Below are positions 2,470 through 18,074 of a DNA stretch of 64,000 nucleotides, in pieces (position 1 is the first letter of the stretch; the number at the start of each line of letters is the position of its first letter). The notes beneath the pieces were generated by a model. It was not told the origin of the DNA and did not search any database. It saw nothing but the letters and a program-made list of their open reading frames with translations. This stretch comes from Asanoa siamensis (GTDB lineage: Bacteria > Actinomycetota > Actinomycetes > Mycobacteriales > Micromonosporaceae): contig NZ_BONE01000016.1 of assembly GCF_016862555.1 (NCBI RefSeq), positions 1 to 64,000 of the forward strand, read 5' to 3'. A program made the translations under genes and the position numbers.

Positions 2470-2605
2470 GAATATTTGGGTCATTCGGCGCTTGCTGAAA
2501 GGATCGGAAACGGGACAGCCCCTTTCGACGTGAACCGGCCATTCATCCATGCCCGCCAGTTATCATGTTGGCTCGCCATCCACGCCAATACCGGAGGCGG
2601 GCCGA

Positions 2606-3502
2606 ATGCCCCACCAAAAGCTGGCCGAGCACGACGTTGTGGTTCACGGGGGACGGCGGTTGGCGGTGGCGGTCTCGGGCGCCCCTGATGGTCATCCGGT
2701 CTTTCTGCTGCACGGCACTCCGGGCTCCCGCAGTGGGCCCAAGCCGCGCAGCGGCGTCCTCTACCGCCTGGGCATCCGGCTCATCAGCTACGACCGCCCC
2801 GGTTACGGGCTTTCGTCGCGCAGCCCCGGGCGACGCGTGGCCGACGCCGCGCGGGACGTCGACGCGATCGCCGACCATCTCGGCCTCGAACGGTTCGCGG
2901 TGGTGGGCCGCTCCGGCGGCGGCCCCCACGCGCTGGCCTGCGCCGCCCTGCTGCCCGACCGGGTCACCCGCACCGCCGCCCTGGTCGGCCTCGCGCCGTC
3001 CAACGCCGCCGGGTTGGACTGGTTCGACGGAATGGCGGCCGACAATGTGCGCGGCTATTCGACGGCCGACCGTGACCGGAGCATTCTGGCGGAGCATCTC
3101 CGCCTCCGCGCCGACCGAATAATTCGCGACCCGGAGAGCCTGCTCGAATTCCTCCGCACGCAGATGGCCGAATCCGATCGACGGGTGGTCGACAGCGCCG
3201 TCTTCCGGCGGTTGCTCACCCAGACCTACGCCGAAGGCCTCCGCTGCGGCCCGTACGGCTGGATCGACGACGTGCTCGCCCTGCGCGACGACTGGGACTT
3301 TCCCTTCGACGCCATCGCGGGCCGCGTGCTGCTCTGGCACGGCAAGGACGACACGTTCTCGCCGATCAACCACCTCTGGTGGCTGGCCAACCGGATCCCC
3401 GGGGCGGAGGTGCGCGTGCAGACCGACTCCGCGCACTTCGGCGCCGTCGAGGTGCTGCCCCGGATCCTGGCCTGGCTGATCAGAACGGGTGCGGATCGAT
3501 GA
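2606..3502 (+). CDS. Alpha/beta hydrolase
   Basis: A 298-residue alpha/beta-hydrolase-fold protein. It has the oxyanion-hole motif HGTPGS (about 36-41), the nucleophile elbow G-R-S-G-G with Ser103, an acidic residue in the GKDDTF segment and a histidine in DSAHFG, so a full Ser-Asp-His triad is available. The substrate cannot be predicted. ATG at 2606 has GGAGG about eight bases upstream, which favours it over the upstream in-frame ATG at 2549. The gene converges on the fxsT-like gene and the two 3' ends overlap by 23 bases. It is probably not part of the Fxs operon, being on the other strand. Confidence 0.85.
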   Translation: MPHQKLAEHDVVVHGGRRLAVAVSGAPDGHPVFLLHGTPGSRSGPKPRSGVLYRLGIRLISYDRPGYGLSSRSPGRRVADAARDVDAIADHLGLERFAVVGRSGGGPHALACAALLPDRVTRTAALVGLAPSNAAGLDWFDGMAADNVRGYSTADRDRSILAEHLRLRADRIIRDPESLLEFLRTQMAESDRRVVDSAVFRRLLTQTYAEGLRCGPYGWIDDVLALRDDWDFPFDAIAGRVLLWHGKDDTFSPINHLWWLANRIPGAEVRVQTDSAHFGAVEVLPRILAWLIRTGADR

Positions 3503-6500
3503 TCCGATAGAGATAGTGCCGCCGGCGGAAGGCCCGCACCACGGGGTGCTCGCCGCCGACCCGTTCGACCAGGCGGTGCAGAGCCGTCTCGATCTGCTCC
3601 TCCGCCTCCGGCCGGTCGAGCGCCGCGAGGACCAGCGTGACGTTGGCCCGGCAGCGCAACGTGTTGGGATGGTCGGGCCCGACCACCGCCTCCATCGCGT
3701 CGGCGGTCGCCTCGAAGATCGTCAGGGCCTGTTCGAGCCGACCGGCGTCGACCTCGCAGATGGCTCGGTTCATGTGCGACGAGAGCGTGTACGGATGCAC
3801 CGCCCCCAACACGGTCTGCAGTCCCTCGGCCGCCAGGTCCACCCAGATGCGCGCCTCGTCCGGCTTCCCGGCGGCGCGTTCGGCGATGCCCCGGTTGTTG
3901 GCGCAGACCAGCGTGTGCGGGTGGTTCTCGCCGAACTTGTCGCGGAAGTAGGCGCCCAGATCCGTGAAGTCCCGCGAGGCCTGGACGGGGTCGCCGACCG
4001 CCAGCCGGCTCAGCGCGAGGCTGACCCGACAGCTGAGGGTCTCGGGGTTGTCCTTGCCGAACCGCTCGTTGAGCTTCTCGTAGACCTCCTCGTGGATCTG
4101 CACCGCCTCGCTGTGGCGACCCGCGCTGCGCAGCGACACGGCGAGGTTGGAGCGTGAGGTCAGGGCGGCCCGCGACTCGGCGCCGCGGGTCGCCACGCAG
4201 GACTCGTACACCGTGGTCAGGGCGACCACGGACCGCTCGTAGTCGCCCGCGTCCCGGATGTCGCGTGCGACGTGGGCGGCCGAGGCGAGCGTGAACGGGT
4301 TGGTGTCGCCGAGCGCGACCCGGCGGCCGCGCAGCGTCTGCTCGTCCCGTTCGCGCGCCGTGCGGAAGTCGCCGAGCAGGCGGTTGCAGGCGGCGAGGTT
4401 GTTGAGGGCGGCGAGCGTACGCGGGTGCTCCTCGCCGTGGCTCTCCAACCAGGACCGGTAGGTTCGCTGGTCGAGTTCCAGCGCGTCCGCGTACCGGCCG
4501 ATGCCGCGCAGGTCGCCGGCGAGTCCGCCCGCCGTCATCAGCGTGTGCGGGTGTTCGGGGCCCAACAGTTCGGTCTGCCGCTGCAGCACCTCGGCGTTCA
4601 TGGCCCGGGACGCCTCGAACTCGCCGAGGTCGCGCAGCAGGTTGCCCATGTTGAACTTGAGGTGCAGCAACTGCCGCTCCAGCGTGTCGCGCTCCTCGCT
4701 GCGGTCGGCCGGGATCGCCGCGAGCTTCTCGGTCCAGATCCGCACCGCGTTGGCGGCCCGGACCCGTCCGGAGATCGCGTCACCCTGGATCCACTGGTAC
4801 CGGACGCGGTCGATGATCAGGCGGCGCACCGCCTCGGAGTCGCTGTGCACCACGTCGGCGATGTCCAGGTGGGGCCAGAGCATCCGGAATCGCGGCCAGT
4901 TCTCGTCCTCGTCGACGTCGCCTTCGGGCCGGCCGGCGGCGAGCACGCTCTGCACCTGGCGCCGGGCGTCCTCCAACTCGTCGGCGGACATCCGGGACCG
5001 GACCACCGCCTGCAGCACCCGGTGCACCAGGATCTGCCCGCTGCGGCCGCTGTCCCGGCTGTGGCCCTCGCCCCGCTGGTCGACGCGCAGCAGCGCCAGC
5101 CGGTTGATCTGCTGGACCAGCGACCCGCGAACGACCCGTTCCGAGACGCTCGCGTCGTACGGCTTGAGGAAGGCGGCCAACTCGTCGCCGTAGACGAGGT
5201 CCAGCGCGATCTCCGGGGCCATCACGCTGCACAGTTGGAACAGCCGGTAGGCGGCCGGTGAGCGTTCCCGCAGGCGGTTGAGCGACAGGTCCCAGGTCTT
5301 GTCGATCGACTCGTCGGAGGTCGGCTCCTTCATGGCGCTCGGGCCACGGTCGCGGATGAGGCTGAGGTAGTCGTCGACCGACGTGCCGGTGTCGGCGAGC
5401 CAGGCACCCGCGGCCGCGATGGCGATGGGCAGGTCGGCGAGTTGCTCCGCGACCGCCCGGGCGTCCTCGGGCCGCATCTCCGGAACCCGCTGGATGAGGT
5501 GCGCCACGCTCTCCCGGCGCTGGAAGACGTCGACCGGGAGTTCCTTGGCGCGATCACTCCACGACGGGTTGCGCGAGGTGATCAGCACGTGCCCCCGACC
5601 CTCGGGGAGGTAGGCCCGGAGATCCTCGGGATCGTCGGCGTTGTCATAGATCAACAACCAGCGCTCGGCGGTACGGTTCAGCGCCTGCACGACCGCCCGC
5701 GCCGTCTCGGGGCCCGACCACTCGGTGTGGATGCCGAGGCGGTTGCCCAGGTCGGTCAGCGAGTTCTCGATGTCGCCGATCGGGTCGGTGCTCATCCACC
5801 AGACGACGTCGTACGCGGAACGGAAGCGGTGCGCGTACTCGATCGCCAGTTGGGTCTTGCCCACACCGCCCATGCCCTGCAGCGTGACCGGCATGCCCTG
5901 CTGCCCGGTCGTCTGCCGGCTGAGCAGGGCCACCGTGGCGGTGGCACCGGCCTGCAGCAGCGACCGCAGCCGCCAGAGGTGGCTCTCCCGGCCCGTGAAC
6001 CGGCTGTTGCGCGCCGGCACGTTGAAGATCTCGGTCTCGGTGCCGGGGAACCGGGGCGCGCCCGCCAGCTTGCCCGGCACGTCCACCGGCGAGCGGTTGA
6101 GCAGGGCCAGCACCCGTTCCGCCGCGGTGCGCTCCGGCAGGCCCGCGATGAACGCCGAGTTCGGGATCAGCACGTTGTCGAGGGGCGTCATGTCGGCGAC
6201 GTAGATGGCCAGCGGCTCCTCCGTCGCGGCGTCCGACGGCACGTACACGCTCTGCTCGGCCGCGTTCGCCAGCGAGATGATCGTCAGTTCCCGGGCGGCG
6301 CGGGCCGACTGCGTGTCCGGTTCCGGGTCCTCGAGCACCACGTCGGGGTTGACCTCCGGCGGCAGCGCGGGCAGCACCCGGACGCCGGCGGCCGTGAGCA
6401 CGTGGTCGACCCACTCCGCCCAGACCTGGTCGACCGCCGAGTAGCGCAGCACGACGGCGTCCTCGACCGGGGTCGGCCGGCGCTCGAACCGGGCGTTGAC

Positions 6501-7457
6501 CAGGGCCCGCAGGGCCGGATCGACCACGGGCAGCGAGGTGACCGCACCGTTGGTGATGTAGCCGGCGATCGCCTCGTACGCGCTCAGCAGGGTGCCGGGA
6601 CTGCCGGGGTTGTCGCCGAACGTGGCCAGCGCCTCCTCGTACGCGTAGAAGGCCTGGTAGGGCACCTGCACCTTGGCCCAGTAGAGCTGACGGTCCTGGT
6701 CGGAGAGCTCGGCCGGCAGCCCGGCGAAGCGCTGGAGCGCCACCACGCGACCGGCGTCGGCCTTCTGCTTCTCGGCGGGGTCGACGCGCATCGGCACCGG
6801 CAGGATCCGGATCTTGCGACGGCCGTAGTCGTCCCGGACGGTCCGGGCCACCTGCGCGGCGCCGTCGATGCCCTGGCCGCTCAGCGTGAAGCAGTCGACG
6901 AGGACGTCGGGCAGTTGCTTGGTGCAGATGTCGGCGACGTCGCTGAGCCCCGTGCGGCTGTCGATCAGCGCGTAGTCATAGTTTGCCTTCATGTCGAGCC
7001 GCAGCGCGTCGAAGAACTCGCCGCCGGACCGGTTCTCGTAGAAGTCGTCCCAGCTCGTCGCGGCCAAGGTCGTGGCGTAGTCGTGGTTCTGCTGGCCCGC
7101 CGAGAGGAAGTCGAGCGTGCCGTCACCGGGGAAGTCGTCCCAGCGCAGCGAGAACGAGTACTTCTGGACCGTGGCGTACAGCTCGGCCCAGTCGTCGGGC
7201 CGGCGCCCGCCGGCGGTCGCCCACTCGTATTCCTGGATCAGCTCGATGACCCCCCGAGCGCTGGGCAGTGCGTCCGGCTTCATGAACGGTGCGAAGAACC
7301 GGAACAGCCCCGGCGACTCCAGGTCCCAGTCGACCGCGAGCACCCGCTTCCCGTTCGCGGCCAGGATCCACGCCACGTTGGCCAGAGCCATCGTGCGTCC
7401 GGTGCCACCCTTGTACGAGTAGAAGGTGACGACCTGGCCGTTGCGGTTCTCTGTCAT
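3480..7457 (-). CDS. fxsT: FxsT-type STAND protein: MinD/ParA-like ATPase, NB-ARC and TPR repeats
   Basis: A 1325-residue protein of the kind found in FxSxx-COOH RiPP loci. Domains in order: a MinD/ParA-type P-loop ATPase (deviant Walker A KGGTGRT at 16-22; LIDSRTG at 164-170); a middle region of about 330-430 that may be a degenerate TIR-like domain; an NB-ARC/STAND NTPase (Walker A GMGGVGKT at 528-535, Walker B LLIYDNAD at 601-608, then LITSRNPSW); and about eight kinesin-light-chain-like TPR units (PEHPHTLM, NPETLS, HPYTLS, HPNTLR). GGAAGAGGA upstream supports the start. It is last in the Fxs operon, 51 bases after fxsC. By analogy with other STAND proteins it should be a nucleotide-gated sensor or scaffold; what it senses is unknown. 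Confidence 0.85.
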   Translation of the reverse strand: MTENRNGQVVTFYSYKGGTGRTMALANVAWILAANGKRVLAVDWDLESPGLFRFFAPFMKPDALPSARGVIELIQEYEWATAGGRRPDDWAELYATVQKYSFSLRWDDFPGDGTLDFLSAGQQNHDYATTLAATSWDDFYENRSGGEFFDALRLDMKANYDYALIDSRTGLSDVADICTKQLPDVLVDCFTLSGQGIDGAAQVARTVRDDYGRRKIRILPVPMRVDPAEKQKADAGRVVALQRFAGLPAELSDQDRQLYWAKVQVPYQAFYAYEEALATFGDNPGSPGTLLSAYEAIAGYITNGAVTSLPVVDPALRALVNARFERRPTPVEDAVVLRYSAVDQVWAEWVDHVLTAAGVRVLPALPPEVNPDVVLEDPEPDTQSARAARELTIISLANAAEQSVYVPSDAATEEPLAIYVADMTPLDNVLIPNSAFIAGLPERTAAERVLALLNRSPVDVPGKLAGAPRFPGTETEIFNVPARNSRFTGRESHLWRLRSLLQAGATATVALLSRQTTGQQGMPVTLQGMGGVGKTQLAIEYAHRFRSAYDVVWWMSTDPIGDIENSLTDLGNRLGIHTEWSGPETARAVVQALNRTAERWLLIYDNADDPEDLRAYLPEGRGHVLITSRNPSWSDRAKELPVDVFQRRESVAHLIQRVPEMRPEDARAVAEQLADLPIAIAAAGAWLADTGTSVDDYLSLIRDRGPSAMKEPTSDESIDKTWDLSLNRLRERSPAAYRLFQLCSVMAPEIALDLVYGDELAAFLKPYDASVSERVVRGSLVQQINRLALLRVDQRGEGHSRDSGRSGQILVHRVLQAVVRSRMSADELEDARRQVQSVLAAGRPEGDVDEDENWPRFRMLWPHLDIADVVHSDSEAVRRLIIDRVRYQWIQGDAISGRVRAANAVRIWTEKLAAIPADRSEERDTLERQLLHLKFNMGNLLRDLGEFEASRAMNAEVLQRQTELLGPEHPHTLMTAGGLAGDLRGIGRYADALELDQRTYRSWLESHGEEHPRTLAALNNLAACNRLLGDFRTARERDEQTLRGRRVALGDTNPFTLASAAHVARDIRDAGDYERSVVALTTVYESCVATRGAESRAALTSRSNLAVSLRSAGRHSEAVQIHEEVYEKLNERFGKDNPETLSCRVSLALSRLAVGDPVQASRDFTDLGAYFRDKFGENHPHTLVCANNRGIAERAAGKPDEARIWVDLAAEGLQTVLGAVHPYTLSSHMNRAICEVDAGRLEQALTIFEATADAMEAVVGPDHPNTLRCRANVTLVLAALDRPEAEEQIETALHRLVERVGGEHPVVRAFRRRHYLYRIIDPHPF

Positions 7458-7508
7458 CGAAGTCCTCTTCCGGTGGGCGGGAGCTCGACGGGTCGTGCGG
7501 ACGCTTCG

Positions 7509-8606
7509 CTATCCGGACGGGTCTTCGTCCGGCGGGCGGTTGAGGTAGTGCCTACGGGCGCGCGAGATCAGCTTCCCGATCTGCTGCTTGAACTCGTCCT
7601 GGTCGCGGACGACCTTGTGGTTGGCGTTGCCGCGACCGATCTGGACGACCTCGTCGATCAGCAACGAACCCTGGTCGTACTGGGGGTCGTTGCGATCGAC
7701 CACGACGACCATCGTCACCCACTGGCGCAAGGCGTCGAACGCCGCGCGGACCATCTCCCGACCGCCGTGGTGCTCGAGCACCCAGGGGTCGACGAGGATC
7801 ACTCCCGGGGACGTGTCCAGGAAGTTGTCGTTGCCGGCGAAGTCGACGATCAACGTCGGCATGCGCATGGCTCCGGCCACCCGCGCGGTGTGGTCGGCGA
7901 TCGGCAGGTAGTTGTCGTTCCGGAACGGGCGCCAGTTGGTCGGCCGCGAGTCGTAGCAGTTGCGTTGCCGGTGCGAGGCGATGCGGTTCTCGCTCGGGGC
8001 GATCACCGCGATGATGAACGAGATGCCGGCCCGCACTGGCAGCGACAGCCGGACCGGTTCGGCCTGCGCGCCCGCGGCGGGCAGCTCCGCGGCTTCGACG
8101 ATGCGGCCGGCGAGTCGACGGACGACCGTTCCGTAGTCGTTGGCGTGCGAACGCAGCCGGGACAGGGCCGACAGGCCGTGGCGGGCGTAGTCGGGCAGGT
8201 CGCCGCCGAGCTCGAGAGCCGCGGTGAGGTGGGGGAAGCGGCGATCGGGTGGCAGCGGCACCCAGAGGACCGGCTGGACCTTGCTGATCCGCTGCCCCGC
8301 GGGCACGTTGCTGTCGAGGAAGAGTTGGCTGTCGCGGGGTGGCGCCGCGACGTATTCGGGGGAGAAGAGCGGCACGAACACCCGCGCGCCGGCCACCGCG
8401 CGGTCGATCTCGCTGTCACGGTCCACGCTGGTCGGTTGCAGGTCGCCGGTGCCGATGTCGAGCTCCGGGTTGCGGCGGGGGCGGTCGCGCACCTCGTCAT
8501 GCAGGTCCTCGAAGAAGGTGCGGACCCAGTAGTCGACTCCACCGGACTTCTGGCGGGCATGACTGAGGTAGAAATATGCCTCGCGGCTCGGCCCGGCGGG
8601 GGTCAC
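7509..8606 (-). CDS. fxsC: FxsC-like protein with N-terminal TIR-like domain
   Basis: A 365-residue protein matching the FxsC family found beside FxSxx-COOH peptides. The N-terminus has a TIR-like signature (YFYLSHARQKSG, residues 11-22, then a helix with WVRTFFEDLHDEV), followed by VFVPLFSPEY. The C-terminal half holds a second alpha/beta unit (FIIAVIAPSENR, WRPFR, ILVDPWVL, MVVVVDRNDPQ). The GTG start overlaps the stop of an 18-codon ORF (GTGA) and has no Shine-Dalgarno of its own, implying translational coupling. TIR-like folds can be NADases or adaptors; no catalytic Glu can be assigned with certainty by eye. It is followed by fxsT. Confidence 0.8.
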   Translation of the reverse strand: MTPAGPSREAYFYLSHARQKSGGVDYWVRTFFEDLHDEVRDRPRRNPELDIGTGDLQPTSVDRDSEIDRAVAGARVFVPLFSPEYVAAPPRDSQLFLDSNVPAGQRISKVQPVLWVPLPPDRRFPHLTAALELGGDLPDYARHGLSALSRLRSHANDYGTVVRRLAGRIVEAAELPAAGAQAEPVRLSLPVRAGISFIIAVIAPSENRIASHRQRNCYDSRPTNWRPFRNDNYLPIADHTARVAGAMRMPTLIVDFAGNDNFLDTSPGVILVDPWVLEHHGGREMVRAAFDALRQWVTMVVVVDRNDPQYDQGSLLIDEVVQIGRGNANHKVVRDQDEFKQQIGKLISRARRHYLNRPPDEDPSG

Positions 8607-8659
8607 CGCGCGATGGCCACGGGTCGGGCCGCACGCGAAGCGACGTCGTCAACCTGCAT
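8603..8659 (-). CDS. 18-codon leader ORF coupled to fxsC
   Basis: ATG at 8659 is preceded by AGGGGG at a good distance and encodes MQVDDVASRAARPVAIAR. Its TGA stop overlaps the GTG start of fxsC. It lies downstream of a good internal promoter. It may be a leader peptide that drives coupled translation of fxsC, or an unrecognised small protein. The assignment rests only on the ribosome site, the overlap and the lack of any other ribosome site for fxsC. Confidence 0.45.
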   Translation of the reverse strand: MQVDDVASRAARPVAIAR

Positions 8660-8698
8660 CGAGCCCCCTGGTGAGCGTCCCGTCGGCGGAACCGCGAC

Positions 8699-8728
8699 GT
8701 TCTACAGAGGGTAATCCGACTGTGTCAA
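8699..8728 (-). promoter_or_regulatory. Predicted internal promoter for fxsC-fxsT
   Basis: On the minus strand TTGACA (8728-8723) and TAGAAC (8704-8699) are separated by 18 bases. This is a good housekeeping-sigma promoter in a GC-rich genome where such matches are rare. It sits in the 134-base gap between the AAC(3)-like gene and fxsC, so the signalling half of the locus could be expressed apart from the peptide half. Confidence 0.5.
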
Positions 8729-8740
8729 TGTGTCAGCGCC

Positions 8741-9556
8741 CTAATGGGCCGTTCTCCATCGAGCTATCCACCCGATGGCGTGATCCACCGCGTCTTTGAT
8801 CGGTATCAGGCGGGCGTACGCGTCTCCGACGGACCCGGTGCGCACGAACGGCCGGCTGTCGAGACTCTCGCCCAACTGGGGGAAGCAACTATCATCAAGG
8901 TCAATTGCTCGGAACAGCAGAGTGGTCCGGTGCCGGCCACGGGCGACGAAGCAGCGATATTGCTTGGTCCGCGTCGGCACACCCTTCGGCAGCCGGTATT
9001 CCGCGAGATGAAGCGCCGTGCATTTGTCGTAGCCGACGCCCACCATGAGGCTGTATCCGTTGGCGTCGTGCAGGGCCGCGAGCGGCGACTCGTCACCCAG
9101 ATGCGAATCGAGCCGGTGCCGGGCCATGAGGGTGCCGGCCGACGGGCCGATCGCGGCGAACGACGTCTGCGGATGACCACTGCGGACGGCGTCCGGCCGC
9201 GTCCGCACGTGTTCGGCCAGCAGGCCCATCCGGAACGACGGGCTCCGGTCACGGTCGAAGCCGGGCAGCCCCTCGACGTAGCGCTTGCGCTGCCGGCGGC
9301 GCATTCCGGCGATCGCCGCGTGGTGGTCGCGGCTGGTCGTCGAGTTGTTGGCCGTCTGGGTCGGCACCACCACGGTGCCGGTCGGCCCGATGACCTGCTG
9401 GATGGCGGACAGCAGCGTGTCGGGGCCGCCGCGGACGAAGCCCAGCGCGCGCATCGAGCAGTGCACGAGGACCTGGCCGCCCTGGGGCAGGCCGAGTCGC
9501 CGGAGATCGTCGACCAGCCGTTGCAGGTCGTGCGCCCGCTGCGCGACGGGTGTCAT
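8741..9556 (-). CDS. AAC(3)-family acetyltransferase inside the Fxs RiPP operon
   Basis: A 271-residue protein with the aminoglycoside N3-acetyltransferase fold. Conserved blocks: LVHCSMRALGFVRGG near the N-terminus, GTVVVPTQT, then GLPGFDRDRSP, MGLLAEHVRTRPDAVRSGHPQTSFAA, SHLGDESPL and LMVGVGYDKCTALHLAEYRLP. The ATG overlaps the fxsB stop (ATGA), so it is translationally coupled to the radical SAM maturase. That position argues for a role in peptide maturation or immunity rather than aminoglycoside resistance; that role is inference. Acetyl-CoA dependence follows from the family. Confidence 0.8.
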   Translation of the reverse strand: MTPVAQRAHDLQRLVDDLRRLGLPQGGQVLVHCSMRALGFVRGGPDTLLSAIQQVIGPTGTVVVPTQTANNSTTSRDHHAAIAGMRRRQRKRYVEGLPGFDRDRSPSFRMGLLAEHVRTRPDAVRSGHPQTSFAAIGPSAGTLMARHRLDSHLGDESPLAALHDANGYSLMVGVGYDKCTALHLAEYRLPKGVPTRTKQYRCFVARGRHRTTLLFRAIDLDDSCFPQLGESLDSRPFVRTGSVGDAYARLIPIKDAVDHAIGWIARWRTAH

Positions 9557-11871
9557 CAGCGCCAGGTCTCCGTCGCGCCGGCCATGCGCTCGACGAAGCG
9601 CTCGCCGAGGGCCGTGAGGGCGCCGCTGCCGCGCAGGCCGTCGACCGCGGCCAGGGTCCAGGCCCGGTACCGGTCGACGATCTTCTCCGCCTCCGCCTGG
9701 TCGGGACCCGGCCGGGCGGCGCGCCGCCCCCAGATCTCGGCCACCGCGAGATGGGCGTACGTGCCCTGGAAGACGCCTTCGATCGGGCGCTCGTCGGGCC
9801 GCCAGCCCACCCGCATGGTCACCGGCGAGTTCGGGTCGAACAGGTCGTACATGTCGAGCACGGCGCCGAGCTTGCTGTGCTGGAACTCGTGCACGAGGAT
9901 CACCGCGAGCGACGCCGGGTCGGTCGGCGCGGCGGCCACCGAGCCGAACGCGTCCCGGGCCGTGGAGGCACGCTTCTTGTCGCCCTCGTCGGCGGCCAGC
10001 GGGACGATCGCCATGAGTCCCGCACGCAGCCCGTCGACCTGGTGCGGTGACTCCTCCTTGATGATCGACCACGCGTCGCCGACCGCCTGGCGCCAGGGGG
10101 CCTCCTCCGGCGCGCTGGCCAGCCCCCAGCCGTGGCAGTCCCGGTGCGGGTCGCCGTGCTCGATGATCAGGTCGAGCCCGTCGTCGGTGATCCGGGGCGC
10201 GGGCTGCCACCAGGGCGCTGCCGGGCCGGCCAGGTCGACGTAGAGCTTCTCGTCGTCCAGGTGCACCGTGAAGCTCTGGTGCCCGGTCGACAGCACGGCC
10301 GTGCCGTCGTGCGCTTCGCCCAGCCGCACCGTGCCGAGCCCGGGCAGGTGGACCAGCCCGCCGGCGACCGGCACCACCACCTCGGTCTCGACACCGGCCC
10401 GCAGGCCCGCGGCGGCCGCCAGGTTGGCCAACCGGCTGACCCGCTCGTCGGGTTTGTTGAGCATGGCGACGGCCCAGGGACGCAGGTAGGGGTGGGCGAG
10501 GACCTGGTCGACGGCGGCGGGCGCGGCGCGCTCGATGGCGACCAGCGTCTCCCAGCCGGCCGTCGCCGTCGTGTCGGCGCGCGGCAGGTCGGCGACGCCG
10601 ACCACGAGCGCCCGGGTGATGGAGAGTTGGCTGTCGGCCAGCCACCGGATCGCGGTCGTGCCGCCGTGGCCGGTGGCGATCTCGTCCAGGAGGGTGGTGT
10701 GCTCCGCCTCGGTCGGCCGGACCCGCGCCTGCTGCGCCCGTTCCGATCCGTCGATGTTCATGATCAGCTCCTGGAGATCGGCGCAGTAGACGCTCGGGTT
10801 GTCGAAGCCGCTGCCGGTGCGGAACCGATGGGCGTAGAGGCCCCCGCCGCAACGCCGCACGAGCGGGCAGGCCTGGCACGTCGCGCTCAGGCCGGCGACG
10901 CCGATCTGTCGCTCGTGGACGGCCGGGTGCCGGGAGACCTCGTCGACCGAGTGGCTGAACACCGACATGCCGGTGTCGGGCGCACCGGCGTACGCCGTCT
11001 TGAGCGAGTCGACCTGCTCCCATGATCCGTCGGTGTCGATCACCAGCAGGTCGGCCGCGTCGGTGCCGAGTTGTTCGCTGCCGCCGGGGCCGCCGTCGGC
11101 GGTCGACAGGAGCGACTCGAACATCCGGATCCGCATCGGGCGCCCGTCGGCCACCCAGTTGGCGTGGATGACACCGAGCCAGGTCGCGTACGGGGTGGTG
11201 TCGTCACCCGGACGCAGCGGCGGGGTGTCCCACGTGGCGTGCGGAAGAAGGAAGTCGACGCTCGGCGGTCGTTCGTCCCGCAAGGCCTCGTAGACGGCGA
11301 CGGGGTCGTTGCGAACGTCGATCGTGCACAATATGCCGCCGAACAGCGACCGGTATTCGGGTCGCCGCAGCATGGCCAGTGCCCGGCGCACCTGCTCGTG
11401 GCTGCTGGCGCCGTTGCGGAAACGGCGGTGCAGGTCGTTGGCGGATCGGTCGCCGTCGAGGGAGACGCCTATCTTGACGCCGAACTCCAGCAGGACGTCG
11501 CAGATCGACTCGGTGAGCAGCACGCCATTGGTCTGCATGACCAGGCGGAGGTCGGTCACCGGCGCTATCGTCGCCCGGAGTTCGGTCAGGACGCTGCGGA
11601 GGCCGTGCGCTCCGAGCAGCAATGGTTCGCCGCCGTGCACGATCACGCTGACGCTCGGCAGGTGCCAGGCGCTCGCGTGTTCGGCGATCCGTCCCGCCAC
11701 CGCGCGTACGGTGGCGGGCGTGATCATTTTGCTCTTCTGACGCCAGCTTTGATCGGCGTGCTCGAAGACGTAACAATGGTCGCAGGCAAGATCACATCGG
11801 CCGTGCACCTTCAGCACGAACTGTCGCAGCGGGTGCGGCCCGCCGGTGATCCGACCCGCGGTGTCGGGCAT
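9556..11871 (-). CDS. fxsB: FxsB-type radical SAM/SPASM peptide maturase with C-terminal HExxH domain
   Basis: A 771-residue protein. The radical SAM [4Fe-4S] motif is Cys26-x3-Cys30-x2-Cys33 (CDLACDHC), followed by the GGEPLLL motif (about 80-86). A SPASM-type cysteine set follows at 332, 335, 341 and 363. The C-terminal half carries HEFQH (661-665), the HExxH-type peptide beta-hydroxylase-like domain known as a fusion to some FxsB proteins. FxsB enzymes belong with the Xye/Grr/Fxs maturases that form three-residue cyclophanes in their peptides, so the expected site here is Phe-Ser-Ser at the end of FxsA. Start and stop both overlap neighbours (ATGA on each side). Confidence 0.92.
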   Translation of the reverse strand: MPDTAGRITGGPHPLRQFVLKVHGRCDLACDHCYVFEHADQSWRQKSKMITPATVRAVAGRIAEHASAWHLPSVSVIVHGGEPLLLGAHGLRSVLTELRATIAPVTDLRLVMQTNGVLLTESICDVLLEFGVKIGVSLDGDRSANDLHRRFRNGASSHEQVRRALAMLRRPEYRSLFGGILCTIDVRNDPVAVYEALRDERPPSVDFLLPHATWDTPPLRPGDDTTPYATWLGVIHANWVADGRPMRIRMFESLLSTADGGPGGSEQLGTDAADLLVIDTDGSWEQVDSLKTAYAGAPDTGMSVFSHSVDEVSRHPAVHERQIGVAGLSATCQACPLVRRCGGGLYAHRFRTGSGFDNPSVYCADLQELIMNIDGSERAQQARVRPTEAEHTTLLDEIATGHGGTTAIRWLADSQLSITRALVVGVADLPRADTTATAGWETLVAIERAAPAAVDQVLAHPYLRPWAVAMLNKPDERVSRLANLAAAAGLRAGVETEVVVPVAGGLVHLPGLGTVRLGEAHDGTAVLSTGHQSFTVHLDDEKLYVDLAGPAAPWWQPAPRITDDGLDLIIEHGDPHRDCHGWGLASAPEEAPWRQAVGDAWSIIKEESPHQVDGLRAGLMAIVPLAADEGDKKRASTARDAFGSVAAAPTDPASLAVILVHEFQHSKLGAVLDMYDLFDPNSPVTMRVGWRPDERPIEGVFQGTYAHLAVAEIWGRRAARPGPDQAEAEKIVDRYRAWTLAAVDGLRGSGALTALGERFVERMAGATETWR

Positions 11872-12044
11872 CAGACGGCGGAGCTGAATTTCGCGACGTC
11901 CAGCTTGGGCGTGACCGCCTCATGATCGACAATGCGGCGCACCACCTTGGCGACCTGGCTCGCGGAGAGACTGTCCAACCTGGCCTCCCGGATGGTGCCT
12001 AACGAGGTGACGAGGCTGTTGGTCCTCACGGCTGCGGCGTTCAC
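11871..12044 (-). CDS. fxsA: FxSxx-COOH RiPP precursor peptide FxsA
   Basis: A 57-residue peptide that ends in Phe53-Ser54-Ser55-Ala56-Val57, fitting the FxSxx-COOH signature exactly. The leader is hydrophilic and helical (SLVTSLGTIREARLDS, then a VAKVVRRIVDHE segment), as in other FxsA peptides. GTG at 12044 was chosen because AGGAG lies six bases upstream; an upstream in-frame GTG at 12164 has no such site. The stop overlaps the fxsB ATG. The mature product is probably a short C-terminal peptide with a Phe-to-Ser cyclophane; no protease gene is obvious nearby. Confidence 0.88.
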   Translation of the reverse strand: MNAAAVRTNSLVTSLGTIREARLDSLSASQVAKVVRRIVDHEAVTPKLDVAKFSSAV

Positions 12045-12448
12045 TTTGTGCTCCTGATGAGTGAGCTTCCGGACGAGTATTGCCAGCTTGGAGTAACGAG
12101 CCTGCGGCGCCGAGGCCACGGCGGTAACCCTCCGTGGTCGTAGCCGGCGTGTGAATTGAACCACAGTCTCATGTGGTGGGTCTTAGGTTGGGGCAGGTTC
12201 GCGCGCGGCGGCGCCGAGCTGGCATGTGCCGCTCGCCGCGCGCGGATTCGGCAGCCATCGGCAGAGTACAGAGGGCATGCTCGTCTGCCGACACACCACG
12301 AGTCCGTCGGACATCCTGCCCGTCGGAATCGCCGCTGTCACCGATGAAGCTTTATTTCATCGTGAATTTTCCGGGGGGCAGAGATCCGGCCGTTCCGCTG
12401 TGCTCCCAAGCCGTGACCGTGTGCTTCCATTGCTGCGGGAGGCCGCCG
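12045..12448. other. Divergent intergenic region between fxsA and the NACHT gene
   Basis: About 400 bases without a supportable gene; reading frames extending into it from both sides lack ribosome sites and family similarity. It holds a short inverted repeat, CCACA (12161-12165) and TGTGG (12172-12176), that could be an operator near the middle of the divergent promoters. No confident -35/-10 pair was found for either gene. No regulator gene lies beside it. Confidence 0.45.
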
Positions 12449-15400
12449 GTGACGCCATTGCTGCGCTGGACATTGGTTGGCTTGGCTGCGGCCTGCGCAT
12501 TCGCCGGCACCTGGGTCCTTTGTCAACTGGTGATCGGCCTCGATCCCGATGATTCCAGCGCGATCGGTGGTGCCGCGATGGCGATTGTCACCGCGCCGGT
12601 CATCGCGTGGGCCGCGCAGCCGTCGACCGGCCAACGATCGACGGGTCTGCTGACCCGTCCGGCCGACCCTGATGAGCAGGGCGAAATCACCCTCGCGGAT
12701 TATCTGCGGGCCATCAGAAGTCGTTATAGCAGGGTCGACCTGGAGGTCCTGACTCCGCTGAATGACCAGGATGATTATCCGATCATCCCGCTGATCCAGG
12801 TGTTCGTACCGCAACAGGTCAAAGCCGATCCCCCTCCCGTCGAACTCCCGCGTGAGGTGACCCTGCGCCTGCGCGACTCTGATCTCGCCGATCCGCGCCT
12901 GCTCCCGGGGTCGATCACCCAGGCCCAACTGAACCGCGTCCGGCAGTACGAGCAGCGCGACCCGGTCGACGTCCTGCCCCTGATCGCCGGCGAGGGCCGA
13001 CGCCTGGTGCTGCTCGGTGACCCGGGCTCAGGAAAGTCGACCTTGGCCAGGTTCATCGCCCGGCGCCTGGCCGAGCCGACGGTCGACGGCGCCCTGGCCC
13101 CGCTGGAGGGTTGGCTGCCGATCCTGGTGGAACTACGCGAGTACGGCCGGCAGGACGAGCACGCCGCCGGTGACTTCATGGACTTCCTCGACCGGCAGCA
13201 CGCGCAGCACTCGACGGGCCTGCCGCGCGCGTTCCTCGAGGGTCATCTGGAACGGGACGGCCGCGCGATCGTCGTCTTCGACGGCCTCGACGAGATCTTC
13301 GACCCGGCCCGCCGCAACCGGGTGGCGGGCCAGATCGCCGGCTTCGCCGAGCGCCACCTGAAGGTGCGGATCGTGGTCACCTCACGGCCGGTCGGCTATC
13401 AGCGCTCGGTCCTGGAGGCGGCGGGCTTCAAGCGGTACAAGCTGCAGGACCTCGATCTCGGCCGGATGGCCCTGTTCGTACGCCAGTGGTACGTGATCGC
13501 CTGCGGCGGCGACGAAGGCGCGGCGGCGCCGCTGGAACGTCGGCTGATGGACGTGATCGGCTCCTCCACCGCGATCCGTGAGCTCGCCGGCAACCCGATG
13601 CTGCTGACGATCCTCGCGATCATCGGCCGCCGGCAGGCCCTCCCGCGTGACCGCTCGTCGGTCTACAAGCACGCGGTGACGGTCCTCGTCGAGCACTGGG
13701 ACCCGAGCAAGTTCCTGGTCAGCGACCGCGTGGGCGACCTGCCGTTCCTGGACCCGGCCGACCGCCTGGAGATGCTCCGGCTGATCGCCCGCAAGCTGCA
13801 GGACAGCGCGGCCGGGCTGTCGGGCAACTACATCACCGGGCCGGACCTGATGGCCGAGTTCGTCGCGTTCCTGCAGCAACGCGACCCGGCCAACATCAGC
13901 CTGGGGCAGGCCGGGGTGGCGGCCGAGCAGATGCTGCGCCAGTTCCGTGACAGGAACTTCATCCTGAGTCGCTTCGGCGGTGAGGTGTACGGCTTCGTAC
14001 ACCGATCGTTCCTGGAATATCTCACTGCCGCCGACATCGTCCATCGCTTCAACAACGAGCGCAGCCTCAGCGAGGCGGATCTCGTCGACGGCTATTTCGG
14101 GCGGCGGTGCCGGGAGGTGTCGTGGCACGAGGTGCTGCAACTGACCGCGGGGATGCTCGACGAGCGCTTCGTCAACGCGGCCGTGCTGCGCATGCTGTCG
14201 GCCGATCCGCACTGGGCCGCCGGCGACGACGTCGAGCCGCACCACATCCTGGTCGCGATCCGGTGCATCGGCGAGGTGCGCAAGCTGGGTCTGCTGGCCG
14301 ATTCCTGCCGCGCCGCGATCGACCAGCTGATCCGGCTGCTGACGGTGGCCCACCGCCGGGTGACGCGCTCCTACAGCGACTCGGTCAACCGGGCCATCGA
14401 ACAGTCCGTCCTGCCGGTCCTCATGACCTTCGCGGCGTACTGGCCGGGGCGCGAGACGTACCTCTCCTGGTTCCAGCGCAGCGGCTTCGTCGAGGCGGAC
14501 GACCCGGTGACGGGGCTGACGGCGACGCGGGTGGCGGTCACCCTGGGCGGGGACGATCCCGAGTTGCGGGCGTTCCTGGAGCTCCGCGCGAGTCACGGCT
14601 GGAGCGTCAACCATCGGGTCGCCGCGGCGGTCGGCCTGGTCCAGGGCTGGCCGACCGACCAGCGCAGCCTGGAGATCGTCCGCAGGCAGTGCGCCGCCGA
14701 CCCGAGCTGGGTCGTCCGGCTCGGCGCGCTGCAGGCGATGGTGGCGCTGGCCGGGCAGCAGAAATCGACCCTGGGCCTGCTGCGGGCGCGCGCGGTGGAC
14801 GACGAGAACGAGGAGATCCGGCGTACCGCGGTCCGGGCCTTGGCGACGCACTGGATCGACGCCCCGGACACCCGGTCGTTGCTCACCGGACGGGCCACCC
14901 GGGACGGGCATCACTACGTCCGCTCCGCCGCGCTGGAGGTGATCGCCGAGCGGTGGCCCGGCGACAGTGCCATCCGGGCGCTGGTCTTCCGGCAGGGCGG
15001 CACCGACCCGCACGAACACGTGCGGCAGGCCGCGCTGCGCCTGGTGGCCGCGCTCTGGGCGGGCGAGGTGGGCAGCCGCTCCTGGCTGCAGGACCGGGCC
15101 GAGGCGGATCCGAGCGCGGACGTGCGCCGGGCGGGGCTCACGGCGATCGCGAAGGGCTGGCCGGGGGACACCGCGTGGCTGCGGGTCCGTGCCGTGTCGG
15201 ACCATCACCCCGGCGTACGGCAGGCGGCGGTCACCGCGATCGCGGAGAACGACCCGGGCACCGCGGCGGACCTGCTCGGCCGGCTCGGTGACGAGAGCGG
15301 TGAGGTCCGGGAGGCGGTCCTGCAGGCACTGGCGGGCATCGGGTTCGGGGTTCCGGGGTTCGTCGAGGTGCTGCGCGGGCTGGCGGAGCGGGATCCGAGC

Positions 15401-16459
15401 GCCGACGTGCGCCTCGTCGCGTTGGAGGCGCTGGGCCCGCACGTCCGCCATGACGACGCGCTCCAAGGGTGGTTGCGGCAGCGGGCGCAGAACGACCAGA
15501 ACGATCGGGTACGCAGCACCGGCGTGCGCCTGTTGAGCGAGACCTGGCACGAGGATCCGCTGGTCGAGATCTGGTTGCGCGAGACGGCGTCGCGGGACCG
15601 GTCGGCGTCCGTACGCCGCGCCGCGGTGACGTCGCTGGCCACCGCCGGTCGCGACGACGACGACACGCTGCCGTGGCTGCTGCGGTGCGCGGTCGACGAC
15701 CCCGACGTCGACGTCCGGATGACGGCGGTCCACCACATCGCTGACGGCTGGGCGGAGTCACCGGGCGTCCGGACCTGGCTGCACGCGCGCTTCGCGAACG
15801 AGCCGGCCGAGGACGTCCGCAACCTGGTCATGCGCGCACTGGTGGCCCGCTGGCACAACGAACCGGAGACCTACGCCCTGCTCTGCGCCGGCGCACAGCA
15901 GGACCGCCACGAGTTCATCCGCCGCGCGGCGGTCTGGATGATCGCCGACGGATGGCCGGACGAGCCGGGTGCACTGACGCTGCTGCGGGGCTGCGCGATG
16001 AACGACACCCACGAGATCGTCCGGCGAGCGGCGGTGCAGGCGGTCGCCGTGGGCTGGCACGACGACCCGGAAACGCTGGGCCTCCTGCTCGGCCGCGCCA
16101 CGGACGACCCACACGAACACGTCCGCGCGGGCGTCCTACGCTCGATAGCCAGCGGCTGGCACGACGACGCGGCGACCTTGCCGCTGCTGGTCCGCCGCGC
16201 GACCGCCGAGCAGCACCCGGCCGTCCGCTCCCTGGTCCTCCAGATCATCGTCTCCGGCTGGCCGGTCACCGCGGAGTCGCTGCACACGGCCCTGACCCTG
16301 GCGGCCGGCGACCCGGCACCCGCGGTGAGACTGACCGCGGTGCAGGCACTGGCCCGCTTCTGGCACAGCGACGCCGCGGTCGCGGCCCTGCTCCACCGCC
16401 TCGCAACAGACGACCCGGACGAGGACATCCGGCAAGCGGCCCACACAGCGGCCCGCTGA
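12449..16459 (+). CDS. Membrane-anchored NACHT NTPase with C-terminal HEAT-type repeats
   Basis: A 1336-residue STAND protein. GTG at 12449 has GGGAGG seven bases upstream, which is why it was preferred to earlier in-frame starts. Two hydrophobic segments (about 8-30 and 39-56) should anchor it in the membrane. The NACHT domain follows: Walker A GDPGSGKS (190-197), Walker B VVFDGLDE (about 267-274), VTSRPVGY. From about residue 690 to the end there are some 18 HEAT-like repeats of 30-36 residues, each with a core like D-P-x-x-x-V-R-x-A-A-V. NACHT proteins with repeat arrays include bacterial anti-phage sensors, but none of the usual nuclease effectors is visible. It is divergent from fxsA. 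Confidence 0.85.
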   Translation: MTPLLRWTLVGLAAACAFAGTWVLCQLVIGLDPDDSSAIGGAAMAIVTAPVIAWAAQPSTGQRSTGLLTRPADPDEQGEITLADYLRAIRSRYSRVDLEVLTPLNDQDDYPIIPLIQVFVPQQVKADPPPVELPREVTLRLRDSDLADPRLLPGSITQAQLNRVRQYEQRDPVDVLPLIAGEGRRLVLLGDPGSGKSTLARFIARRLAEPTVDGALAPLEGWLPILVELREYGRQDEHAAGDFMDFLDRQHAQHSTGLPRAFLEGHLERDGRAIVVFDGLDEIFDPARRNRVAGQIAGFAERHLKVRIVVTSRPVGYQRSVLEAAGFKRYKLQDLDLGRMALFVRQWYVIACGGDEGAAAPLERRLMDVIGSSTAIRELAGNPMLLTILAIIGRRQALPRDRSSVYKHAVTVLVEHWDPSKFLVSDRVGDLPFLDPADRLEMLRLIARKLQDSAAGLSGNYITGPDLMAEFVAFLQQRDPANISLGQAGVAAEQMLRQFRDRNFILSRFGGEVYGFVHRSFLEYLTAADIVHRFNNERSLSEADLVDGYFGRRCREVSWHEVLQLTAGMLDERFVNAAVLRMLSADPHWAAGDDVEPHHILVAIRCIGEVRKLGLLADSCRAAIDQLIRLLTVAHRRVTRSYSDSVNRAIEQSVLPVLMTFAAYWPGRETYLSWFQRSGFVEADDPVTGLTATRVAVTLGGDDPELRAFLELRASHGWSVNHRVAAAVGLVQGWPTDQRSLEIVRRQCAADPSWVVRLGALQAMVALAGQQKSTLGLLRARAVDDENEEIRRTAVRALATHWIDAPDTRSLLTGRATRDGHHYVRSAALEVIAERWPGDSAIRALVFRQGGTDPHEHVRQAALRLVAALWAGEVGSRSWLQDRAEADPSADVRRAGLTAIAKGWPGDTAWLRVRAVSDHHPGVRQAAVTAIAENDPGTAADLLGRLGDESGEVREAVLQALAGIGFGVPGFVEVLRGLAERDPSADVRLVALEALGPHVRHDDALQGWLRQRAQNDQNDRVRSTGVRLLSETWHEDPLVEIWLRETASRDRSASVRRAAVTSLATAGRDDDDTLPWLLRCAVDDPDVDVRMTAVHHIADGWAESPGVRTWLHARFANEPAEDVRNLVMRALVARWHNEPETYALLCAGAQQDRHEFIRRAAVWMIADGWPDEPGALTLLRGCAMNDTHEIVRRAAVQAVAVGWHDDPETLGLLLGRATDDPHEHVRAGVLRSIASGWHDDAATLPLLVRRATAEQHPAVRSLVLQIIVSGWPVTAESLHTALTLAAGDPAPAVRLTAVQALARFWHSDAAVAALLHRLATDDPDEDIRQAAHTAAR

Positions 16460-16682
16460 GCCCCGCCCGCGGCCCTGCGTTAGACGAGGACGTCGGGTAG
16501 GTGGGGCTGGTACATGCCTTGAGCGAGGACTTCGACGAAGACATGGGGCCAGGCGGTGCTGGTCCGTCCGGGTCCGGACACCGCGCTGCTCGATCTGCCC
16601 CGCTGTTGCGTGGCGATCGGGTCGCGGCGAGGCAGGCCGGCGGGCCGCGGACCCTCACCCGTTGGGCTGGCCGGCTTGGCGG

Positions 16683-18062
16683 TCAGTCGGATGGTTGGGC
16701 GGCCTCGACCGGCAGCAGTCGGCCGCCCTTGAGGTCCGTCGGGTCTGTTGTTTCGCGCCAGCCGGCCGGCCAGTCGGCGTGGCGGGTGCGGTCGGCGCGG
16801 CGGGCGTCGGTGAAGTCTGGTTCTGTCGCGAACTCCGCGTCGGTGAACCAGGCCTCGCCGCCGAACTCGGCGTGGTCGAACTCCGCGTCGCGGTGGAACT
16901 TCGCGTCGCTGAAGGCCGCCGCCTCCGCGAACGAGACCGCGCTGAAGTTGGCTCGGCGGTGGAACGTGGTCTCGCGGAAGCCGCCCACCCCCGTGAACCG
17001 GGCCGTGCGGAACAGCGCCCGGCCCAGGAACGTCGCGGCGGCGAAGCCGGCGGCCCGGCCGAACACCACGTCGCTGAACTCAGCGTCGTGTGCGAAGACC
17101 GCGCGGTCGAAGTCGGCGACCGCCCCGAACGAGGCCTCCTCGAACGTGACCACGCCCTGGAACCGCACGTCGTCGAACCGCGCCGGACCGTCGAACCGCA
17201 CCTTGCCGAAATCGACCTGTGCGGCGAAGACGGCGCCCGCGAAGCTCGCCGCGTCGGCGAACGAAGCACTGTCGAAGCGGGTTCGGCCGTCGAAGGTCGC
17301 CCTGGTGAAGACAGCGCGGTGCAGCCGGCCCCGTTCGATGCTCCAGTCGACCAGCCGCGCGCCCGTGAGGTCGATGTCGATGCCCGGCCAGAACGTCTGC
17401 TCAGGGCTCCCGGCGACATCCGCGTCGGCGCTGCCGGGTGGACAGCAGAGGTGTCGCGTCAGGATGCCCTGCGCCGTGACCCGGACCTGGAGCTGCTCGT
17501 TCGGATCCCGGCCACCGTTGCGGGCACCCCGCTGACCCGGCGCGACCGGCGGCGCGAACGGCATGCGCAGCAGCGCACAGACCACGTTGACGATGGGCTG
17601 CCGCTGCCCGACGTTGTCCTGGGCCAACCGGTCCAGGGCGTAGAGGGCGCCGAGCCGCACCGCCGCGTCCGGCGAGCCGAGCAGCTCGACCGCCTTCGTG
17701 TAGAGCTCCGTCACCCGCCGCTCCCGCGCGTCCTGCTCGGTGTGGGCCTGGGTCTGCTGCGCCAACTCGTACGCCCGCTCCGCCAGCCGCTGCCGGCGCA
17801 CCGCGAGCAGGAGCGCCGCCAGCCCGCCGGCAGCCGCCACATATCCGACGCCGTACTTGATGGCGTCGATCCGCAGCGTCGACCGTTGCGCCGCCGTGGG
17901 TGCGTCGCCGGCCACCTGCAGCATCCACAGCAACGCCGTGAGTCCGAGGGCCATCGTCGCGACCACGGCGGTCGCGATGCCACGGTCGGTCACCAGCCAG
18001 GGCAACCGATCCTCGCCGGCGGTCGCGGGCCCGCGCGTCCACATAGCTGCATGGTGCCTCAC
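16683..18062 (-). CDS. Pentapeptide-like repeat membrane protein
   Basis: A protein of about 459 residues with two predicted membrane helices (about 29-52 and 71-88), a charged helix (about 91-125), and from about residue 252 to 415 a very regular array in which Phe recurs at alternating five- and six-residue steps (RATF, DGRTRF, DSASF, ADAASF). That is about 15 copies of an 11-residue double coil, as in F-rich pentapeptide-repeat families that form a quadrilateral beta helix. The cytosolic beta helix probably acts as a scaffold; the ligand is unknown. GTG at 18062 lies 12 bases after the preceding stop; an ATG at 18044 is an alternative start. It is last in a three-gene operon. Confidence 0.75.
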   Translation of the reverse strand: MRHHAAMWTRGPATAGEDRLPWLVTDRGIATAVVATMALGLTALLWMLQVAGDAPTAAQRSTLRIDAIKYGVGYVAAAGGLAALLLAVRRQRLAERAYELAQQTQAHTEQDARERRVTELYTKAVELLGSPDAAVRLGALYALDRLAQDNVGQRQPIVNVVCALLRMPFAPPVAPGQRGARNGGRDPNEQLQVRVTAQGILTRHLCCPPGSADADVAGSPEQTFWPGIDIDLTGARLVDWSIERGRLHRAVFTRATFDGRTRFDSASFADAASFAGAVFAAQVDFGKVRFDGPARFDDVRFQGVVTFEEASFGAVADFDRAVFAHDAEFSDVVFGRAAGFAAATFLGRALFRTARFTGVGGFRETTFHRRANFSAVSFAEAAAFSDAKFHRDAEFDHAEFGGEAWFTDAEFATEPDFTDARRADRTRHADWPAGWRETTDPTDLKGGRLLPVEAAQPSD

Positions 18063-18074
18063 CCGATCAAGCGC

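What the first reader, a model, noticed from the sequence alone, without database searches (positions are those of the whole stretch)
3480..12044. Complete FxSxx-COOH (triceptide-class) RiPP locus with novel gene order
Seen: a 57-residue precursor ending Phe-Ser-Ser-Ala-Val, a radical SAM/SPASM maturase coupled by ATGA, an AAC(3)-like enzyme coupled by ATGA, then FxsC and FxsT. Known: FxsB-class maturases make three-residue cyclophanes on aromatic-x-Ser type motifs. Inference: the product is a C-terminal Phe-Ser cyclophane peptide. Its biological role is unknown, and no exporter or protease is linked.
Basis: partly seen in the sequence, partly recalled or inferred. Interest (0 to 1): 0.75.

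Follow-up and report, generated by a model that had tools for sequence, protein, structure and literature searches.

The report
Common actinobacterial cyclic-peptide and immune-like cassette
This stretch holds a known kind of bacterial gene cassette that is predicted to put a chemical ring on the end of a small protein and that sits beside immune-receptor-like genes; its gene order is ordinary, but two of its enzyme genes are tied to such cassettes more closely than expected, which makes its unknown role easier to test.

Summary
The gene order is not novel: of 105 distinct fused-FxsB loci with FxsC and FxsT, 54 read B-AAC3-C-T and 51 read B-C-T.

(1) FxsB carries an intact C-terminal aKG-HExxH hydroxylase-type domain. 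(2) An alpha/beta-hydrolase, tail-to-tail with FxsT at 2549-3502, accompanies 90 of 104 such loci with enough sequence. (3) A divergent NACHT-HEAT gene accompanies 6 of 105. (4) The whole 15.6-kb block is an insert that five of five congeners lack at this site.

Where the HExxH site has decayed, Val three residues before the cyclophane Phe is nearly always gone (Val in 69 of 85 intact, 1 of 14 decayed loci), over about four changes on a tree: suggestive, not significant.

Best reading: a modified peptide coupled to a STAND/TIR-like conflict system, close to what Kaur et al. 2020 proposed for this class. New member of a known kind.

The parts
11871..12044 (-). FxsA precursor, 57 aa, C-terminus D49-V-A-K-F53-S-S55-A-V57; GTG start with AGGAG site
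   Evidence: such an end found upstream of FxsB in 100 of 106 loci
9556..11871 (-). FxsB: radical SAM/SPASM (res. 15-373) fused to an aKG-HExxH peptide beta-hydroxylase-type domain (res. 598-763; HEFQH at 661-665, His707)
   Evidence: TIGR04269 544.6 bits, TIGR04267 156.5 bits; solved relatives 9gm3 (ChlB) and 22nu; motif alignment
8741..9556 (-). AAC(3)-fold acyltransferase of a group tied to Fxs loci; below the AAC(3) resistance-family cut-offs
   Evidence: PF02522 240 bits; NF033082 166 bits, cut-off 270; 12 of the 13 non-self matches of 192 bits or more lie within 10 kb of an FxsB gene, 0 of 26 weaker ones (against coordinates)
7509..8606 (-). FxsC: TIR-like N-terminal half with an eroded Glu region; C-terminal half with only weak flavodoxin-like matches
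   Evidence: alignments; AlphaFold model mean pLDDT 74.9 and Foldseek
3480..7457 (-). FxsT: MinD/ParA-like KGGTGR domain, weak TIR-like segment near residue 335, NB-ARC (STAND) ATPase, TPR repeats
   Evidence: NF040586 929.6 bits, NF047398 138.3 bits; NB-ARC, TPR and a sub-threshold TIR_2 match; K16, R21 and K534 in 105 of 105
2549..3502 (+). Conserved alpha/beta-hydrolase, tail-to-tail with FxsT (3480-3502 shared); presumed triad S122-D268-H296
   Evidence: model mean pLDDT 87.1, nearest solved structure 9wlv
12449..16459 (+). NACHT-HEAT STAND protein, divergent from FxsA; start inferred from where relatives' similarity begins
   Evidence: PF05729 43.7 bits, HEAT_2 191 bits; divergent partner in 6 of 105 distinct loci
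2471..18073 (.). Block absent from this site in five congeners: all of the above plus a pentapeptide-repeat gene (16683-18062)
   Evidence: DNA similarity to the five congeners stops at 2468-2470 and resumes at 18074-18093

Best explanation
The locus makes a C-terminally modified peptide and couples it to a STAND/TIR-like conflict system. FxsB's radical SAM domain joins Phe53 to Ser55 of FxsA (chemistry reported for the family; here inferred). Its fused aKG-HExxH domain then hydroxylates a residue just before the ring, most likely in the Val50-Ala51 segment (inferred from covariation). The AAC(3)-fold enzyme adds an acyl group to an amine, for example a freed N-terminus (weak inference). The modified FxSxx carboxyl end is a ligand or signal that FxsT (ParA-like, TIR-like, NB-ARC, TPR) senses, with FxsC as TIR-like partner and the conserved alpha/beta-hydrolase acting on the same pathway (inferred from linkage alone). 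In this strain a second STAND protein, the NACHT-HEAT, is added. Shown: gene content, domains, linkage and the insert. Inferred: every chemical and signalling step.
For: Domain calls over cut-off. FxsB, FxsC and FxsT stand in this order on one strand in 105 of 112 distinct fused loci; of the 7 others, L056 is cut by its contig end and L155 and L174 lack only a recognised FxsC. K16, R21 and the NB-ARC lysine of FxsT are invariant in 105 of 105. The hydrolase lies within 2.1 kb of FxsT, convergent, in 90 of 104; in 101 genomes, the 15 matches of 322 bits or more (own included) all lie within about 2.1 kb of an FxsT. Val(-3): 69 of 85 HExxH-intact, 1 of 14 decayed (Fisher p 1e-7 on the set with one duplicate, kinship ignored); about 4 changes of HExxH state on the tree, 2.5 of 3 supported pairs agreeing on average and none opposing. 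The ParA-like part of FxsT matches a candidate-defence model, PDC-M28B, at 74.7 bits. The block is an insert in one of six congeners. Kaur et al. 2020, section 24, propose a toxin or signal role.
Against: No experiment shows any step here. Other PADLOC matches are weak or generic. FxsC in this window lacks the CG[RK]EW stretch of Streptomyces and Actinomadura relatives and the other Glu-bearing stretches of its nearer kin, so it may not be an active NADase. Three to four independent contrasts cannot reach significance by sign test, and 16 of 85 intact loci lack Val(-3). The hydrolase is absent from 14 of 104 loci, and its nearest folds are an uncharacterised hydrolase and esterases, which say nothing of a peptide substrate. 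AAC(3) is absent from 51 of 105 loci.
Confidence: 0.5

Rival explanations
1. An ordinary secreted RiPP: the cyclophane peptide is cut free, exported and acts outside the cell as an antimicrobial or hormone; FxsC and FxsT only regulate or protect the producer.
For: Darobactin and dynobactin, with related crosslinks, have well understood activities (passage; that they are antibiotics is recalled for dynobactin). The same passage says triceptide bioactivities are not yet elucidated, so this is open.
Against: No exporter among the proteins of the block that I scanned; the ABC transporter genes at 27.8-31.2 kb lie outside it. FxsC and FxsT accompany fused FxsB in 105 of 112 distinct loci, very constant for optional regulators.
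Confidence: 0.2
2. The fused HExxH domain cuts the peptide instead of only hydroxylating it, by alpha-hydroxylation of an Ala as in PosC/PflC, and so frees the cyclophane end without any protease.
For: PosC cleaves oxidatively at Ala (PMC12636437, parts 1 and 3 of 6 read). Ala is at -2 in 62 of 85 HExxH-intact and 2 of 14 decayed distinct loci.
Against: 23 of 85 intact loci lack Ala at -2, and one clade (VTPF) has neither Ala nor Gly in the three residues before Phe. For the fused relative ChlBH the passage I saw reports hydroxylation of Asp and His and mentions no cutting.
Confidence: 0.2
3. The peptide is not released: FxsA stays full length and its modified C-terminus works as a cofactor-like or adaptor tail.
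For: No peptidase family among the block's proteins scanned; the last residue is Ile or Val in 70 of 86 intact loci (one duplicate included), and the motif sits at the very end (partly by selection).
Against: The part before the core diverges fast between loci, which fits a discarded leader.
Confidence: 0.2
4. The AAC(3)-like gene is an aminoglycoside resistance gene that happens to lie here.
For: PF02522 at 240 bits; 21 distinct solved relatives, most named aminoglycoside acetyltransferases.
Against: 166 bits against a cut-off of 270 for NF033082; it stands between FxsB and FxsC in 54 of 105 distinct loci; 12 of its 13 best non-self matches are Fxs-linked.
Confidence: 0.05

Closest known systems
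FxSxx-COOH peptide systems (NCBIfam FxsB/C/T) and the standalone actinobacterial peptide-processing systems of Kaur et al. 2020
   Same: Precursor ending FxSxx, FxsB, FxsC, MinD/ParA-AP-ATPase-TPR protein
   Different: The AAC(3)-fold enzyme, the hydrolase convergent with FxsT and the NACHT-HEAT partner are not in the section and passages I read; in those, the zincin-like protein is called a metallopeptidase and an alpha/beta-hydrolase is mentioned with caspase-type systems
Triceptides made by MscB and other three-residue cyclophane-forming enzymes
   Same: F-x-S core and cyclophane-forming radical SAM/SPASM family
   Different: Here a hydroxylase-type domain is fused and the product has not been seen
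ChlBH fused radical SAM/aKG-HExxH enzymes (Morishita et al. 2024, seen only as cited)
   Same: Same two-domain layout; ChlB is the best solved match to the radical SAM half
   Different: The predicted hydroxylation segment here is Val-Ala, whereas Asp and His are reported for ChlH

Membership tests
FxSxx-COOH system | Small precursor ending F-x-S-x-x next to FxsB | tested here: met
   FSSAV end, one-base overlap with fxsB
FxSxx-COOH system | FxsB over TIGR04269 cut-off with CxxxCxxC and SPASM cysteines | tested here: met
   544.6 bits against 370; alignment
FxSxx-COOH system | FxsC: both NCBIfam models over cut-off | tested here: inconclusive
   TIGR04276 67.6 over 55; NF040588 97.8 under 130
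FxSxx-COOH system | FxsT over NF040586 cut-off | tested here: met
   929.6 over 300
Triceptide (three-residue cyclophane RiPP) | Phe-Ser C-C crosslink in the product | not testable with these tools
   needs mass spectrometry or NMR
aKG-HExxH peptide beta-hydroxylase | TIGR04267 over cut-off, HExxH and third His | tested here: met
   156.5 over 40; HEFQH and His707 (that His707 is the third ligand is inferred)
aKG-HExxH peptide beta-hydroxylase | Hydroxylation activity | not testable with these tools
   needs an enzyme assay
AAC(3) aminoglycoside resistance enzyme | Score over NF033082 or subfamily cut-offs | tested here: not met
   166 against 270; the four others are further below
TIR NADase | Conserved Glu of the TIR active site in FxsC | tested here: inconclusive
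   CG[RK]EW of Streptomyces and Actinomadura FxsCs reads RDSQL here, so the Glu seems lost; the alignment is uncertain there, the model has pLDDT under 50 at 92-108, and the role of that Glu is recalled
STAND NTPase | NB-ARC or NACHT P-loop | tested here: met
   FxsT NB-ARC 36.1 bits and NACHT 43.7 bits; P-loop Lys in 105 of 105 FxsTs
VMAP ternary conflict system | vWA and MoxR/VMAP genes beside the peptide genes | tested here: not met
   no such domain among the 8 proteins of the block scanned

The most novel reading that the evidence does not exclude
The cyclophane-tipped C-terminus of FxsA is an intracellular alarm ligand: its carboxyl-terminal FxSx(I/V) end docks on the FxsT TPR repeats to hold or fire a STAND/TIR-like immune switch, the fused hydroxylase tunes that ligand on the Val-Ala segment before the ring, and the dedicated alpha/beta-hydrolase by FxsT removes a mark or opens the signal. 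To my knowledge (not searched exhaustively) this would be the first RiPP whose target is the producer's own immune receptor.
Probability: 0.25. Interest if true: 0.8.

Novelty: new member of a known kind. Interest (0 to 1): 0.42.

Why it matters
[quoted passage not shown] The comparison here gives that question handles: a conserved hydrolase gene to delete, an AAC(3)-fold enzyme of the same loci to assay on the peptide, and a predicted hydroxylation segment that changes together with decay of the enzyme's active site. If the immune-coupling reading holds, a widespread class of actinobacterial peptides would be internal signals rather than secreted products.

Tried and rejected
Rejected: 'novel gene order'. 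Not supported: AAC(3) as acylase of the hydroxyl put on by the HExxH domain, since AAC(3) is no rarer where the HExxH is lost (11 of 15) than where it is intact (43 of 90 distinct; Fisher p 0.09 with one duplicate). An early sample showed a stronger AAC(3)-HExxH link (8 of 35 intact, 10 of 14 lost; my tally) that faded with more loci. Weakened: 'Ala at -2 in nearly all HExxH-intact systems' held in most of the first set but only in 62 of 85 later. Foldseek of the FxsC model gave only weak matches, one at E under 0.001 with rmsd 17 and then others, flavodoxins among them. PADLOC gave one candidate-defence match to the ParA-like part of FxsT and otherwise weak or generic ones. NCBIfam gave the NACHT-HEAT protein only 33 bits to the antiphage EruA model, cut-off 1000.

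Limits of the counts: loci were taken from the strongest FxsB or NF040587 hits with long frames, not at random; 60 of the fused hits listed were fetched. Duplicates L053, L136 and L101 were dropped before the counts; L064 and L175 turned out identical only at the end, so those counts hold one duplicate (106 loci; the tree had 103 rows after further near-identical rows were left out) and those do not (105). L104 was a 401-base slip and was not used. FxsA was not found in 6 loci. The HExxH state was read by a HE..H match after residue 450 of the frame. The 13 weaker hydrolase matches and the AAC(3) contig of G042 were not examined for neighbours. Both trees are quick ones with several long, unsure branches, and they cannot tell gain from loss.

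Literature: ten searches of one open-access library. I opened PMC7159879 (section 24 and passages), PMC12636437 (parts 1 and 3 of 6, and passages), PMC11002830, PMC10885120 and PMC12257519 (passages); the other listed papers were seen as title and start of abstract only. The key triceptide papers could not be read (Phan and Morinaka 2022 and Sugiyama et al. 2022 seen only in reference lists; Morishita et al. 2024 not held), so nothing here is a claim of priority for the hydrolase, the AAC(3) link or the covariation.
Full report
What is there. Library scans place FxsB, FxsT and the C-terminal half of FxsC over curated NCBIfam cut-offs; the TIR-like half of FxsC falls short of its own. FxsA has no match in NCBIfam or Pfam and only a chance-like one in PADLOC, but its F-S-S-A-V end, the AGGAG site before its GTG and its one-base overlap with fxsB identify it.

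Residues 598-763 match the aKG-HExxH peptide beta-hydroxylase model at 156.5 bits (cut-off 40). The radical SAM half is closest to solved ChlB (228 bits) and the other half to chain 22nu (226 bits). The HExxH motif and a candidate third His are intact. So two modifications are predicted, not one.

How common it is. FxsB passes its cut-off in 35 of 101 relatives, in 161 of 250 genomes of the window's family and in 25 of 35 genomes of another family. I gathered loci whose FxsB is fused to the second domain. Of 112 distinct ones, 105 have FxsC and FxsT downstream on the same strand; the other seven include one cut by its contig end (L056) and two with FxsT but no recognised FxsC (L155, L174). By position, 54 of the 105 read FxsB-AAC3-FxsC-FxsT and 51 read FxsB-FxsC-FxsT; 6 have the NACHT-HEAT gene divergent from FxsA. 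The order is therefore the rule, not a novelty. Kaur et al. 2020 (PMC7159879, section 24) had described standalone actinobacterial systems of this sort and proposed that the peptide is a toxin or signal.

A conserved hydrolase by FxsT. The gene at 2549-3502 meets FxsT tail to tail. It is present within 2.1 kb of FxsT, convergent in every case found, in 90 of 104 distinct loci with enough sequence; 14 with room lack it. In 101 relatives searched with it alone, the 15 matches of at least 322 bits (own included) all lie within about 2.1 kb of an FxsT gene, two of them in other arrangements (L186, L188); a partial match in G006 does too; the 13 other matches are at most 219 bits and their neighbours were not examined. 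In the stretches held of unfused-type loci L043-L045, L047, L112, L114 and L116 it was not found; L052/L188 and L186 have it. Ser122, Asp268 and His296 are kept in 96, 95 and 95 of 96 sequences, duplicates included. The model (mean pLDDT 87.1) is nearest to an uncharacterised hydrolase, 9wlv, then to esterases and C-C hydrolases. A peptide substrate is possible but not indicated.

The AAC(3)-like gene is also tied to these loci. Of 13 non-self matches of at least 192 bits in 101 genomes, 12 lie within 10 kb of an over-cut-off or split FxsB; the other (G042) was not examined. None of the 26 weaker ones does (against the coordinates). It fails the resistance-family cut-offs.

A clue to what the hydroxylase does. 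Among distinct loci with FxsA found, Val stands three residues before the Phe in 69 of 85 with an intact HExxH and 1 of 14 with a decayed one; Ala stands at -2 in 62 of 85 and 2 of 14 (Fisher p 1.1e-7 and 6e-5 on the set with one duplicate, kinship ignored). On a tree of the radical SAM part alone the HExxH state changed about four times; in the three supported independent pairs Val(-3) went the same way in 2.5 on average and never the other way (Ala(-2): 1.6). This is suggestive, not significant, and 16 of 85 intact loci lack Val(-3). The decayed form itself is known: NCBIfam has a model for it (NF040587).

An insert. In all five congeners held, DNA similarity to the window ends at the glmS stop (2468-2470) and resumes at 18074-18093, with 0.8-1.7 kb of other DNA between. 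The 15.6-kb block is thus accessory at this site, as conflict cassettes often are (recalled); the one tRNA call in the window is not at its edges.

Signs for a receptor-like role. FxsT has a KGGTGR MinD/ParA-like domain and an NB-ARC P-loop (key residues in 105 of 105) and TPR repeats; its ParA-like part also matches the candidate-defence model PDC-M28B at 74.7 bits. FxsC is TIR-like, but in this window the stretch that reads CG[RK]EW in Streptomyces and Actinomadura is eroded; nearer kin show other Glu-bearing stretches such as WALGEQ. The NACHT-HEAT protein is a second STAND NTPase. Together with linkage this favours a modified peptide read by a STAND system, but nothing here tests binding.

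Verdict. Observation confirmed; novelty of order refuted; interpretation enlarged. A new member of a known kind, with linkage and covariation results that make the open question of triceptide function easier to test.

Noticed in passing
window 2471-18073: 15.6-kb insert between glmS and an Abhydrolase_8 gene; the five congeners carry 0.8-1.7 kb of other DNA there, of differing lengths, so the site may be an insertion hot spot.
   Followed up: partly
window 16683-18062: Pentapeptide-repeat protein inside the insert; no similar gene in the other Fxs loci held.
   Followed up: partly
G000:C41 (L042, 8778-11326): The same genome has a second, unfused FxsB with a separate HExxH-type protein and two FxsT-like TPR genes; no FxsC match was seen.
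   Followed up: no
window 16039-16137: ARAGORN calls a tRNA-His inside the NACHT-HEAT reading frame; probably spurious.
   Followed up: no
L041, L150, L154, L158, L160, L161, L168: A clade in which the TIR-like Glu region of FxsC is more eroded and FxsA ends in His or Pro (FxsA of L150 not found).
   Followed up: no
window 27765-31249: Two adjacent ABC transporter genes outside the insert, beyond alr and tsaD; no sign of a tie to the Fxs genes.
   Followed up: no
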